This document shows, in pieces, positions 59,513-64,000 of a DNA stretch of 64,000 nt (positions are counted from its first letter, which is position 1; each line of letters begins with the position of its first letter). The stretch covers positions 248,001 through 312,000 of the forward strand of contig JAUJMO010000003.1 in assembly GCA_030446805.1 (NCBI GenBank), in the 5' to 3' direction. A program made the translations under genes and the position numbers. Source of the DNA: Caulobacteraceae bacterium. GTDB taxonomy: Bacteria; Pseudomonadota; Alphaproteobacteria; Caulobacterales; Caulobacteraceae. Below the pieces are notes generated by a model. That model saw only the letters and a list, made by a program, of their open reading frames with translations, was not told the origin of the DNA and did not search any database.

Positions 59513-61300
59513 TCAGGCCGCCTCGCTGCGGGTCTCGCTGACTCGGAATGGGCGTGGAGCGGGAAGGGCGGCCGTCTCCTCGTCAAGGGGCGGGTGCGGC
59601 TCCGGATCCGGCACGGGGAAGAAGAGGCGCGCCGCCATGCCGCCTCCCTCCAGGGCAGCCAGCTCGGCGCGGCCGCGCAGCTGACGTGCAAAGGCGGTCA
59701 TCAGGGTGCGGCCCACTCCGCCCGAAGCCGCCTCGGCGGCCCCGCCGACGCCGTCGTCGACGATCTCCAACCGGGCCTCCGCGCCCTCCACCACCAGGCT
59801 GACGGTGACCTGGCCGGCCCGACCGGGAAAGGCGTGTTTGAAGGCGTTGGTCAGGGCCTCAACGGCGAAAAGCGCGAAAGGCGCGAGCTTGTCCGGGTCG
59901 AGAAGCAGCTCGTCGCTCGTGATCGCCGTTCGGACCGGATACGCCTTTGGGCCTTCGCCGTTCAGCAGCTGAGCCACCAGCTCCTCCAGGAAGGAGTGAA
60001 CCTCGACGCGCCGCAGATCCGAGCTCTGGTAGAGCGCGCGATAGATCAGCGCCAAGGCGGTGATCCGCTGGCGCATGTCCCCCATGGCCGCCTTCGCCGC
60101 CGGGTCGGTCAACTGTCTCTGCTGCATGTTGAGCATGGAGGTGATGACCTGGAGGTTGTTCTTCACGCGGTGGTGGATCTCGCGCATCAGGGCGTCCTTC
60201 TGCGCCAGGCTGTCGCGCAGCGAGGCGTCCCGGGCCGTGATGGCCAGCCCCATTTCGTCCAGGGTGTGAGCCAGCGCACGGATCTCGTCGGGGGCTTTGG
60301 ACACCTGAACTGGGCGGCTGGTGAACCTGCCTTCCGCGTAGTCCTGGGCGATTCGATCGAGATAGCTCAGCCAACGGACCACCACCCGCTCGGTGGCGAA
60401 GCCAACCGCGATCAGGGCCAGCAGCCAGGCCAGCAGCGGCAGGCCGATGTTGCTGATCGGGTCCAGTCGCGCCCAGGACCAGACATTCGGCTCCGGGGCG
60501 GACAGCAGCACGAAGACGTCGTCGTCGACCAGCCGGGCGCCGGCGAAAACGCGCCGTTCTCCGGTGCGGCTGTCGGCCTCGAACAGGTAGGCGCCGCGTT
60601 TCAGGGTCTGTGCGGTCCAGTCCTGCGGGGCCGTGGTGAATGCGGCCCGGTTCGTCACGGTCAGCAGGGAGCCGTTACGATCGGCCAGCGCCACCTCCGT
60701 GCGATGCGGCAAGCCGGCTTCCCTGGGGTTGGGCCGCAGGCTGGACAGCCGGATCACGGCCACGAGGACGCCGTCGAAGCTCCCGTCCTGCTTTTCCGTA
60801 CGGACGGCCGCGACCACGGCAGCCTGTTCGTCGATGTGGCCGGCGGGTCCGCTGGTGATCTCCAGCCGCTCGCCCCGGGCGAGCGCCTGAAACCAGGGTT
60901 GGGCGGCCCGGTTCGGGTCGGCGGGCACGGCGTCAGCGGCGCAGCTGATTCGTCCGGCCGGGGTGAAGCGAACCAGGTTCTCATAGCCTTCCAGCTTGTC
61001 CCGGACCGCCCGCAGGCGCGGCAGGCAGTTCACGCCCAGGGTGTCGGGGGCGAGGGCCTCGAGCAGGGCCGCGGCGCTTTCCAGCTTGGCGCGCGCCAGC
61101 AGCGAGGCCGTTTCGGCCTCGGCGATCAGGGCCGACCGGCGTTGTTCGGTGTCCTCGCGGAAGCTGAACCAGGACTGGACGGCGCCCAGCAGCAGCACGG
61201 GAAGCAGGGCCGTCGCCAAAGCCAGGGTGAGCCGGCGCCGGATGGTGAGCCCCGTCACCGGACCGTCACCGCGCCCCGCTAAGGCGCTCCGCATCGGCAA
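59513..61300 (-). CDS. phyK: GSR sensor histidine kinase, HisKA_2 type (PhyK-like)
   Basis: The 595-residue kinase has TM1 (TLALATALLPVLLLGAVQSW), a periplasmic dCache-like sensor of about 240 residues, TM2 (LPLLAWLLALIAVGFATERV), HAMP and a HisKA_2 domain with DALMREIHHRVKNNLQVITS (His376/377) then the ATPase with EALTNAFKHAFPG and IVDDGVGG. It is the expected phosphodonor of PhyR. The frame overlaps ecfG by 35 bp; a GTG at 61258 is an alternative start that would avoid this. It follows ecfG on the same strand. Confidence 0.88.
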   Translation of the reverse strand: MPMRSALAGRGDGPVTGLTIRRRLTLALATALLPVLLLGAVQSWFSFREDTEQRRSALIAEAETASLLARAKLESAAALLEALAPDTLGVNCLPRLRAVRDKLEGYENLVRFTPAGRISCAADAVPADPNRAAQPWFQALARGERLEITSGPAGHIDEQAAVVAAVRTEKQDGSFDGVLVAVIRLSSLRPNPREAGLPHRTEVALADRNGSLLTVTNRAAFTTAPQDWTAQTLKRGAYLFEADSRTGERRVFAGARLVDDDVFVLLSAPEPNVWSWARLDPISNIGLPLLAWLLALIAVGFATERVVVRWLSYLDRIAQDYAEGRFTSRPVQVSKAPDEIRALAHTLDEMGLAITARDASLRDSLAQKDALMREIHHRVKNNLQVITSMLNMQQRQLTDPAAKAAMGDMRQRITALALIYRALYQSSDLRRVEVHSFLEELVAQLLNGEGPKAYPVRTAITSDELLLDPDKLAPFALFAVEALTNAFKHAFPGRAGQVTVSLVVEGAEARLEIVDDGVGGAAEAASGGVGRTLMTAFARQLRGRAELAALEGGGMAARLFFPVPDPEPHPPLDEETAALPAPRPFRVSETRSEAA

Positions 61301-62154: not shown

Positions 62155-62179
62155 AACATCACAACTCGGGAACCGTTCC
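62155..62179 (-). promoter_or_regulatory. EcfG-type promoter of nepR-ecfG
   Basis: On the minus strand GGAAC (62179-62175) is followed after 17 nt by GTT (62157-62155). It gives positive autoregulation of ecfG. Its -35 shares the palindrome GGGAACCGTTCCC (62168-62180) with the divergent phyR promoter. Confidence 0.72.
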
Positions 62180-62193
62180 CAGGATCGCACGTT
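62169..62193 (+). promoter_or_regulatory. EcfG-type promoter of phyR
   Basis: On the plus strand GGAAC (62169-62173), a 16-nt spacer and CGTT (62190-62193) match the EcfG consensus. The likely start point is near 62200, about 70 nt before the phyR TTG. Confidence 0.75.
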
Positions 62194-62268: not shown

Positions 62269-63066
62269 TTGGGTCTGCTTGAACGATTGGCGCCGCACCT
62301 CCCCTATGTGCGGCGCTACGCCCGGGCCTTGACCGGAGATCAATCCACCGGCGACCGCTATGTCCGCGTGGCCCTTGAAGCTTTGGCGGCCGGGGACCGG
62401 GTTCTCGAGGCCCACCTCACGCCCCGCGTCGCCCTGTACCATGTGTTTCACACCATCTGGTGCTCCACCGGAGCTCAGTTGGAGAGCGGTCGCCAGGAGT
62501 CGCTGGATGCGTCCGACGCCGGCGGGCGGCTGATGCGCATCGCGCCCCGTTCGCGCCAGGCGTTTCTGCTGACCGCGCTTGAAGGCTTCACCCCCAACGA
62601 AGCCGCGCAGATATTGTCGGCCCGCATTGATGAGGTCGAGCAACTCATCGCCGAAGCCCAGGCCGAGATCGAGTCCGAACTGGCCACCGACGTCCTGATC
62701 ATCGAGGACGAGCCGGTGATCGCCGCAGACATCGAGGCCCTGGTGCGCGAATTAGGTCATCGGGTGCTGGACATCGCGGCCACGCGCACCGAAGCGGCCG
62801 AGGCCGTGGCGCGGCGCCAGCCGGGACTGGTCCTGGCCGACATCCAGCTCGCCGACGGATCCTCCGGGGTGGACGCCGTCAAGGACATCCTGGCCCAACT
62901 GGACGTGCCCGTGATCTTCATCACCGCCTTCCCCGAGCGCCTGCTCACCGGCGAGCGGCCGGAGCCCACCTTTCTGATCACCAAGCCCTTCCAGCCGGAA
63001 ACGGTGAAGGCGGCCATCGGCCAGGCGCTGTTCTTCCATCCCGCCCGGAGCGCCAAGGCGGCCTGA
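62269..63066 (+). CDS. phyR: Response regulator PhyR (sigma-like domain plus receiver)
   Basis: The 265-residue protein starts at TTG 62269 with the SD GGAGGGGG just upstream. Residues 1-135 form the sigma-factor-like domain (LLERLAPHLPYVRRYARALT, SRQAFLLTALEGFTPNEAAQ IL) and 140-260 the receiver (acid pocket Glu146/Asp147, phospho-acceptor Asp191 in VLADIQLADG, Thr219, Lys239 in ITKPFQP). When phosphorylated it binds NepR and frees EcfG. It is divergent from nepR-ecfG with 160 bp between the starts. Confidence 0.95.
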   Translation: MGLLERLAPHLPYVRRYARALTGDQSTGDRYVRVALEALAAGDRVLEAHLTPRVALYHVFHTIWCSTGAQLESGRQESLDASDAGGRLMRIAPRSRQAFLLTALEGFTPNEAAQILSARIDEVEQLIAEAQAEIESELATDVLIIEDEPVIAADIEALVRELGHRVLDIAATRTEAAEAVARRQPGLVLADIQLADGSSGVDAVKDILAQLDVPVIFITAFPERLLTGERPEPTFLITKPFQPETVKAAIGQALFFHPARSAKAA

Positions 63067-63121: not shown

Positions 63122-63367
63122 TCAGTCTCCCTTGGGGGGTTGGGGCGTTTCGTTGAACAGCTCCGCATCCCGCCGGTCACGGCCCGCGTCCACGTCCAGG
63201 CTTTCCTGCTTGTCCGGCCGCCAGAGCATTGCGCCCATGACAAAGATCACCGCCAGCGCGAGCGAGGCGATCAGAACCCAGAGCACGGGCTTGTCGCGGA
63301 AACCCGCGCGGGCGCGGGTTTCCGAAACGCGCGGTCCGGGCGGTTGATCGCTGGGAATGTTGCTCAT
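63122..63367 (-). CDS. Small single-pass membrane protein, likely EcfG regulon
   Basis: The 81-residue protein has a Pro-rich cytoplasmic start, one TM segment (PVLWVLIASLALAVIFVMGAML, about residues 27-48) and a charged tail RPDKQESLDVDAGRDRRDAE LFNE. The gene is divergent from the PRC-barrel-like gene and both share a symmetric EcfG-type double promoter. The function is unknown; a stress-related envelope role is inferred from regulation only. Confidence 0.72.
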   Translation of the reverse strand: MSNIPSDQPPGPRVSETRARAGFRDKPVLWVLIASLALAVIFVMGAMLWRPDKQESLDVDAGRDRRDAELFNETPQPPKGD

Positions 63368-63396: not shown

Positions 63397-63422
63397 GGAA
63401 CGCCCGGCCGTCGCGCGCCGTT
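63397..63422 (+). promoter_or_regulatory. EcfG-type promoter, rightward half of a symmetric pair
   Basis: GGAAC (63397-63401), 17 nt, then CGTT (63419-63422) would drive the gene at 63479. Because GGAACG and CGTTCC are reverse complements, the same 28 bp also form a leftward promoter. Confidence 0.68.
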
Positions 63423-63424
63423 CC
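63399..63424 (-). promoter_or_regulatory. EcfG-type promoter, leftward half of a symmetric pair
   Basis: On the minus strand GGAAC (63424-63420), 17 nt, then CGTT (63402-63399) lies 32 bp upstream of the start at 63367. Confidence 0.68.
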
Positions 63425-63478
63425 GCTTGCATCGGCCCGAGGCGTCCCGACATGACCGGCTCACTCAGGACGTCGCCC

Positions 63479-63829
63479 ATGTTCCGATCAGCCCTCCTCA
63501 TCCTCGCCCTGAGCTTGCCCACATCGGCGTTGGCGGCAGCGTTGGCGGCGCCGGCCCGTGCGCCTGCTTCCGGGCTCGCGCAAGGAGGAGCGCCCGGCAT
63601 CGGCGCTCCGGTGCGGGGCGCGAACGGCGAGGTGCTGGGCCGCATCGAATCGGTCACCCGCGACAGCACGGGCCGCCCCGTCCAGGTGGTGGTCCGGACG
63701 CGCGGACTCACCGGCGTGCGCGCCCAATCCCGCGCCGTGCCGATCGCCAGCCTGCGCCCCGATGGGTCCGGCTGGGTGCTTCCGCTTCGCAGGGCGGAAT
63801 TCAATCTGCTTCCCCAGGTTCGCCCCTGA
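63479..63829 (+). CDS. Secreted PRC-barrel-like protein, likely EcfG regulon
   Basis: From the ATG at 63479 (AGGAC upstream) the 116-residue product has a signal peptide (MFRSALLILALSLPTSALAA) and a domain GAPVRGANGEVLGRIESVTR DSTGRPVQVVVRTRGLTGVR, AQSRAVPIASLRPDGSGWVL, which follows the PRC-barrel pattern (GxxVxxxxGExxGxIexv). The in-frame ATG at 63452 would add nine residues before the signal. Likely periplasmic; stress regulation is inferred from the promoter at 63397. Confidence 0.75.
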   Translation: MFRSALLILALSLPTSALAAALAAPARAPASGLAQGGAPGIGAPVRGANGEVLGRIESVTRDSTGRPVQVVVRTRGLTGVRAQSRAVPIASLRPDGSGWVLPLRRAEFNLLPQVRP

Positions 63830-63860: not shown

Positions 63861-63885
63861 GGAACCCCATCGCGGGAAGCGAGTT
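63861..63885 (+). promoter_or_regulatory. EcfG-type promoter of a candidate sRNA
   Basis: GGAAC (63861-63865), 17 nt, then GTT (63883-63885, within GTTTTC). It has the same spacing as the nepR promoter. No coding frame with a proper start follows; a structured, terminated RNA does. Confidence 0.72.
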
Positions 63886-63891
63886 TTCACG

Positions 63892-64000
63892 ATGCGGAGG
63901 CGGTGACGCCCCCCCGACTAGGCCTGCTACGCAGGCCTGCCGCCTCCGCACCCTATTCTCGATGATGCGCTGCGGCGGGTCCCCGGACCCGCCGCTTTTT
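63892..64000 (+). ncRNA. Candidate GsrN-like stress sRNA, about 105 nt
   Basis: Directly after an EcfG-type promoter the sequence folds into an 11-bp stem TGCGGAGGCGG (63893-63903) / CCGCCTCCGCA (63940-63950). It encloses an exposed run of seven C (63909-63915) and an 8-bp inner hairpin AGGCCTGC-TAC-GCAGGCCT (63920-63938). It ends in a perfect terminator, GCGGCGGGTCC / GGACCCGCCGC plus T5 (63972-64000). In Caulobacter crescentus the SigT-dependent sRNA GsrN has a C-rich loop that pairs with katG and other mRNAs, and this candidate matches in promoter, size, C-rich loop and neighbourhood. The identity is inferred from structure and context, not from an alignment. The 3' end may extend slightly past the window. 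Confidence 0.72.
63972..64000 (+). terminator. Intrinsic terminator of the candidate sRNA
   Basis: An 11-bp perfect stem GCGGCGGGTCC (63972-63982) / GGACCCGCCGC (63985-63995) is followed by at least five T up to the window edge. Confidence 0.88.

What the first reader, a model, noticed from the sequence alone, without database searches (positions are those of the whole stretch)
63861..64000. Candidate EcfG-dependent sRNA with an exposed C7 run, resembling GsrN
A GGAAC-N17-GTT promoter is followed, without any credible coding frame, by a perfect 11-bp stem enclosing CCCCCCC and an inner 8-bp hairpin, then by an 11-bp GC stem and a T run. Caulobacter GsrN is a SigT-controlled sRNA that uses a C-rich loop to pair with G-rich leader sequences such as katG. 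Finding such a unit next to phyR/nepR/ecfG suggests a homologous or convergent RNA arm of the stress response. The structure and promoter are seen in sequence; identity is inference.
Basis: partly seen in the sequence, partly recalled or inferred. Interest (0 to 1): 0.82.

Follow-up and report, generated by a model that had tools for sequence, protein, structure and literature searches.

The report
gsrN stress small RNA, known family
This is the gene for GsrN, an already described small RNA that the general stress sigma factor switches on in Caulobacter and its relatives; it sits in its usual place beside the stress regulators, so the find is correct but ordinary.

Summary
Window 63896-63994 (+) matches all 106 positions of Rfam RF01529 (CC3552) at 66.7 bits (cut-off 50). 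C. vibrioides rings in the same search. The sequence of the nearest Caulobacter genome carries the published GsrN landmarks (six C's, nucleotides C53/T54/T64, katG site GTCGGGG). In Caulobacteraceae, 78 of 149 genomes pass the cut-off. All 79 homologs with enough upstream sequence have GGAAC-N17/18-(G/A)TT in register, 68 of 81 loci carry the phyR/nepR/ecfG locus within 8 kb, and 18 of 24 stem pairs show compensatory change. Homology beats convergence. The promoter motif alone would prove nothing; it is not enriched in this genome. Tien et al. 2018 already reported Caulobacteraceae homologs beside the stress locus.

Two modest additions. First, the experimentally proven katG pairing is absent from this species and at chance level outside Caulobacter (3/38 genomes, 4.2 expected), while the C-loop is nearly invariant. 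Second, a 16-nt perfect complement of the loop lies about 110 nt upstream of alanine dehydrogenase in this genome. It is weakened in the sister species and absent elsewhere, so it is only a candidate target.

The parts
63861..63885 (+). EcfG-type promoter: GGAAC (63861-63865), N17, GTT (63883-63885)
   Evidence: sequence; same element in register in 79 of 79 homologs with 60 bp of upstream sequence, spacer 17 in 72 and 18 in 7
63894..64000 (+). gsrN sRNA gene; 5' end inferred by homology, terminator T tract ends 2 nt beyond the window
   Evidence: RF01529 66.7 bits over 63896-63994; own model R1 97.6 bits
63894..63904 (+). 5' arm of outer stem, pairs with 63939-63949
   Evidence: fold; compensatory changes at 6 of 11 pairs, 99.6% of cells paired
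63905..63919 (+). unpaired target-recognition loop GACGCCCCCCCGACT; C7 at 63909-63915
   Evidence: fold; C-run among the most invariant columns of 69 homologs; this loop is the proven katG-pairing element in C. crescentus (PMC5869019)
63920..63938 (+). inner 8-bp hairpin (3-nt loop)
   Evidence: fold; all five tested pairs of the homologous helix covary
63939..63949 (+). 3' arm of outer stem; the RNA cleavage site of GsrN (C53/T54) falls in this arm by homology
   Evidence: processing reported in PMC5869019
63950..63971 (+). single-stranded linker ACCCTATTCTCGATGATGCGCT, second exposed region
   Evidence: fold; ATTCTCGATGATGC block kept in most genera
63972..64000 (+). intrinsic terminator: 10-bp stem 63972-63995, loop of 4, then T7 (to 64002)
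62269..63066 (+). phyR, general stress response regulator
   Evidence: PF22029, PF22233, PF00072
61857..62162 (-). nepR, anti-sigma factor (true start probably inside)
   Evidence: PF18557
61266..61856 (-). ecfG/sigT, general stress sigma factor
   Evidence: Sigma70_r2, Sigma70_r4_2; 77-84% identical to the EcfG next to gsrN in most relatives
59513..61300 (-). HisKA_2/HWE sensor kinase of the stress locus
   Evidence: PF07568, PF07536

Best explanation
63894-64002 is the gsrN gene of this Caulobacteraceae species, an ortholog of Caulobacter GsrN (Rfam RF01529, CC3552). EcfG, released when phosphorylated PhyR takes up NepR, transcribes it from the GGAAC/GTT promoter. The roughly 100-nt RNA folds with the C7 loop exposed, and an intrinsic terminator ends it. 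By homology it is cut in the 3' arm of the outer stem to leave a stable 5' isoform, and the C-loop pairs with G-rich stretches of target mRNAs and so changes their translation or stability under stress. Identity, structure, promoter and synteny are shown here by sequence. Expression, EcfG dependence, processing and pairing are inferred from C. crescentus. The actual targets in this species are unknown, and katG is unlikely to be one by the published site.
For: RF01529 match, 66.7 bits, full model, above the gathering score. C. vibrioides is the only control genome of 14 that rings, and 78 of 149 Caulobacteraceae pass the cut-off. Link of RF01529 to GsrN: in the Caulobacter genome G129, counting from GCGAAGG, bases 53, 54 and 64 are C, T and T, nt 37 is in the hairpin loop, the loop has six C's, and katG carries GTCGGGG at -39. 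These fit the published C53 end, T54/T64 RACE ends, the nt 37 tag site and the katG site GUCGGGG (PMC5869019). Promoter in register in 79/79. Covariation: 18 of 24 pairs with changes on both sides, 97.9% of cells paired, 0/500 shuffles as high. Synteny: 68/81. Published homologs in Caulobacter, Brevundimonas and Phenylobacterium are typically next to ecfG/nepR/phyR.
Against: No transcript data for this species. katG here has no loop-complementary G tract, so the best-known function may not carry over. The genus shows some divergence: UUGAG after the C-loop is missing and the inner hairpin has a different sequence. It scores in the lower part of the family.
Confidence: 0.94

Rival explanations
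1. A convergent, unrelated EcfG-driven sRNA with a C-rich loop, as may be the case for the Rhizobiaceae RNAs found by position.
For: C-rich loops occur in several unrelated sRNAs (stated in PMC5869019); single promoter motifs are common by chance.
Against: Full-length RF01529 match and an alignment with 68 homologs sharing stem, loop, linker block and promoter register; same gene neighbourhood.
Confidence: 0.02
2. A pseudogene or non-functional remnant of gsrN in this genus.
For: Lower score than many relatives (66.7 bits), changed inner hairpin, no katG site. Decayed copies may exist in the family: a diverged copy in a Brevundimonas genome (G126) keeps the 3' part but not the C-run.
Against: Promoter, C7 loop, stems and terminator are all intact, and the sister species G017 has the same RNA and promoter letter for letter over the aligned part.
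Confidence: 0.03
3. A protein-coding frame or untranslated region of a neighbouring gene rather than an sRNA.
For: Several open frames cross the region.
Against: Such frames are typical of high-GC DNA. The real neighbours end at 63829 (PRC-barrel protein) and start beyond the terminator (tryptophan 2,3-dioxygenase). Compensatory stem changes and variable lengths across homologs do not fit a reading frame.
Confidence: 0.01

Closest known systems
GsrN of Caulobacter crescentus (ccna_R0081; Tien, Fiebig and Crosson 2018, PMC5869019)
   Same: EcfG/SigT promoter, exposed C-run in a large 5' loop, inner hairpin, linker, intrinsic terminator, about 100 nt; in most relatives next to phyR/nepR/ecfG as here
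   Different: C7 instead of six C's; no UUGAG after the loop; different inner hairpin sequence; adjacent to the stress locus (in C. crescentus it is distal); katG leader here lacks the GUCGGGG site
Rfam RF01529 (CC3552)
   Same: full 106-position match at 66.7 bits, above gathering score 50
   Different: nothing structural; the Rfam description shown does not use the name GsrN
GsrN-like RNAs of Rhizobiaceae (predicted by position in PMC5869019)
   Same: EcfG site, position near the stress locus, exposed C-rich loop (as published)
   Different: no sequence homology detected: model R1 finds nothing outside Caulobacteraceae in order- and class-wide samples

Membership tests
RF01529 / GsrN | score above the curated gathering threshold of the covariance model | tested here: met
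   66.7 bits against 50, model 1-106
RF01529 / GsrN | stem-enclosed loop with an exposed run of about six cytosines at the 5' end | tested here: met
   C7 at 63909-63915, unpaired in MFE and centroid folds; nearly invariant in the alignment
RF01529 / GsrN | EcfG/SigT promoter directly upstream | tested here: met
   GGAAC-N17-GTT ending 8 nt before the inferred 5' end; 79/79 homologs. Sequence evidence only
RF01529 / GsrN | intrinsic terminator at about 100 nt | tested here: met
RF01529 / GsrN | structure conserved by compensatory change | tested here: met
   18 of 24 pairs
RF01529 / GsrN | transcription dependent on EcfG | not testable with these tools
   needs RNA from wild type and ecfG mutant
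RF01529 / GsrN | endonucleolytic processing to a stable 5' isoform | not testable with these tools
   needs northern blot or 5' RACE
RF01529 / GsrN | pairing of the C-loop with the katG leader (a function in C. crescentus, not a family-defining feature) | tested here: not met
   no loop-complementary GGGG tract in katG -100..+6 here; duplex energy no better than shuffles. Positive control G129/G076 shows the published GTCGGGG
General stress response locus (PhyR-NepR-EcfG) | PhyR, NepR and EcfG encoded together next to the RNA | tested here: met
   Pfam hits; order kinase-ecfG-nepR / phyR, then gsrN 0.8 kb downstream of phyR

The most novel reading that the evidence does not exclude
GsrN keeps a nearly invariant C-loop while its targets are rewired between genera: the katG control proven in C. 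crescentus is a Caulobacter trait, and in this genus the loop acts on other mRNAs, for example the leader of alanine dehydrogenase (C5:228288-228302, minus strand), which carries a 16-nt perfect complement of the loop.
Probability: 0.25. Interest if true: 0.4.

Novelty: already known. Interest (0 to 1): 0.16.

Why it matters
It confirms a first-stage guess and gives a family-wide picture of gsrN: present in over half of sampled Caulobacteraceae genomes, promoter in register in every testable copy, and no hit outside the family in the genomes sampled. The one useful question it raises is why the loop is so constant when its only experimentally proven pairing, with katG, is not conserved beyond Caulobacter.

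Tried and rejected
Convergence with GsrN: rejected on the RF01529 match and alignment. Search for gsrN outside Caulobacteraceae with a covariance model from 69 homologs: no hit among the order (150 genomes) and class (240 genomes) samples except in Caulobacteraceae; strict filters could hide very divergent copies. Weak model hits in genus g15 (28-30 bits) looked like terminators with no C-loop or EcfG site and were set aside. katG as target in this species: rejected by the leader sequence. An early katG leader scan used the wrong frame and was redone. One parse failed on 22 genomes and was replaced with all 57 placed. Alanine dehydrogenase leader as a family-wide target: rejected, at most 7 nt of complement in the 28 other-genus genomes examined. 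A second gsrN copy at the alanine dehydrogenase site: no stem arms or EcfG promoter were seen there on reading the sequence. EcfG motif enrichment in the genome: none.

Full report
What is there. GGAAC (63861-63865) and GTT (63883-63885) lie 17 nt apart. After them comes an outer stem (63894-63904 with 63939-63949), an unpaired loop with C7 at 63909-63915, an inner 8-bp hairpin and a GC terminator followed by T7. The T run ends 2 nt beyond the window. The fold is far more stable than shuffled sequence (z = -5.8). Two small corrections: from the inferred 5' end the outer stem has 10 Watson-Crick pairs plus one G-U, and the terminator is 10 bp with a 4-nt loop. No protein gene covers the stretch. 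The PRC-barrel protein upstream ends at 63829, and tryptophan 2,3-dioxygenase starts after the terminator.

What it is. Rfam RF01529 (CC3552, a Caulobacter sRNA) matches 63896-63994 over the full model at 66.7 bits, cut-off 50. The same model rings in Caulobacter vibrioides among 14 control genomes and passes the cut-off in 78 of 149 Caulobacteraceae genomes. The Rfam description shown does not use the name GsrN, so I tested the link. In Caulobacter genomes G129 and G076 the RF01529 RNA has six C's in the large loop, and their katG leaders hold GTCGGGG 39 nt before the start. Counted from GCGAAGG, the G129 RNA has C at 53, T at 54, T at 64 and nt 37 in the hairpin loop. These are the published GsrN landmarks (processing near C53, RACE ends T54 and T64, tag at nt 37, six cytosines, katG site GUCGGGG; PMC5869019). 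RF01529 is therefore gsrN, and the window element is its ortholog.

Strength of the case. The EcfG promoter motif on its own is weak evidence. The looser form occurs 9 times in the window against 4.5 expected, and the consensus is not enriched in the genome. But in 79 of 79 homologs with 60 bp of upstream sequence it stands in the same register, spacer 17 (72) or 18 (7). In 69 aligned homologs, 18 of 24 pairs show changes on both sides that keep pairing, 97.9% of cells pair, and no shuffle or slid control comes near. In 68 of 81 loci the stress regulators lie within 8 kb, mostly with gsrN 0.5-1.8 kb downstream of phyR on the same strand, as here. Neighbours in the window: HWE-type kinase, ecfG, nepR, phyR.

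Already known. Tien et al. (2018, PMC5869019) reported gsrN homologs in Caulobacter, Brevundimonas and Phenylobacterium, typically next to ecfG/nepR/phyR, with C. crescentus the exception. The window is a further example of that. A covariance model from the 69 homologs found nothing outside Caulobacteraceae in order-wide and class-wide samples, in line with their BLASTn result.

How it most likely works. Stress leads to PhyR phosphorylation, PhyR takes up NepR, EcfG is freed and transcribes gsrN, and the exposed C-loop pairs with G-rich mRNA stretches. All of this is inferred from C. crescentus and the known PhyR-NepR-EcfG pathway; none of it was measured here.

Targets. In C. crescentus the proven target is the first 7 nt of katG mRNA. 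The present species has katG (C5:158547-160676), but its leader has no complementary G tract, and the predicted duplex is no better than shuffles. Over 57 genomes with both genes, a complement of at least 6 nt containing GGGG in the 100-nt leader occurs in 9 of 19 Caulobacter (2.8 expected) but 3 of 38 others (4.2 expected). The Caulobacter genomes are related, so 9 is not 9 independent events. The katG link thus looks like a Caulobacter trait, although other pairing modes are not excluded. In the own genome one site matches the loop perfectly over 16 nt, about 100-115 nt upstream of the alanine dehydrogenase start. The 15-nt core has an expected count of 0.002-0.008 in the genome by Markov models, and the duplex is -38 kcal/mol. 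The sister species G017, whose gsrN is identical over the aligned part, keeps only 9 nt, and no other genus examined has more than 7 nt. I rate it a candidate, not a finding.

Verdict. A correct observation of a known RNA. Interest is low, apart from the contrast between a constant loop and inconstant targets.

Noticed in passing
G000 C5:228288-228302 (-), L184 1501-1515: Perfect 16-nt complement of the GsrN loop (TAGTCGGGGGGGCGTC) about 110 nt upstream of the alanine dehydrogenase start; weakened to 9 nt in the sister species and absent in other genera.
   Followed up: yes
window 62155-62193: Overlapping divergent EcfG-type motifs (GGAAC...GTT) on both strands between nepR and phyR, sharing a GGGAACCGTTCCC stretch; likely self-regulation of the stress locus.
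   Followed up: no
window 63397-63424: GGAAC-N17-CGTT reads in both directions as an inverted repeat between the divergent small genes at 63122-63367 (-) and 63452-63829 (+, PRC-barrel); it may drive both as EcfG targets. Relatives of one or both small proteins occur beside gsrN in some other genera.
   Followed up: partly
L246 (G126, Brevundimonas) and L250 (G106): Diverged gsrN copies that keep the TTCTCGATGATGCGACT linker and terminator but have lost or altered the C-run; the linker block may have a role of its own.
   Followed up: no
alignment A1, linker columns (window 63950-63971): The single-stranded block ATTCTCGATGATGC is kept across most genera but replaced in many Caulobacter genomes (for example TTTGTTGATGCGAAC).
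   Followed up: no
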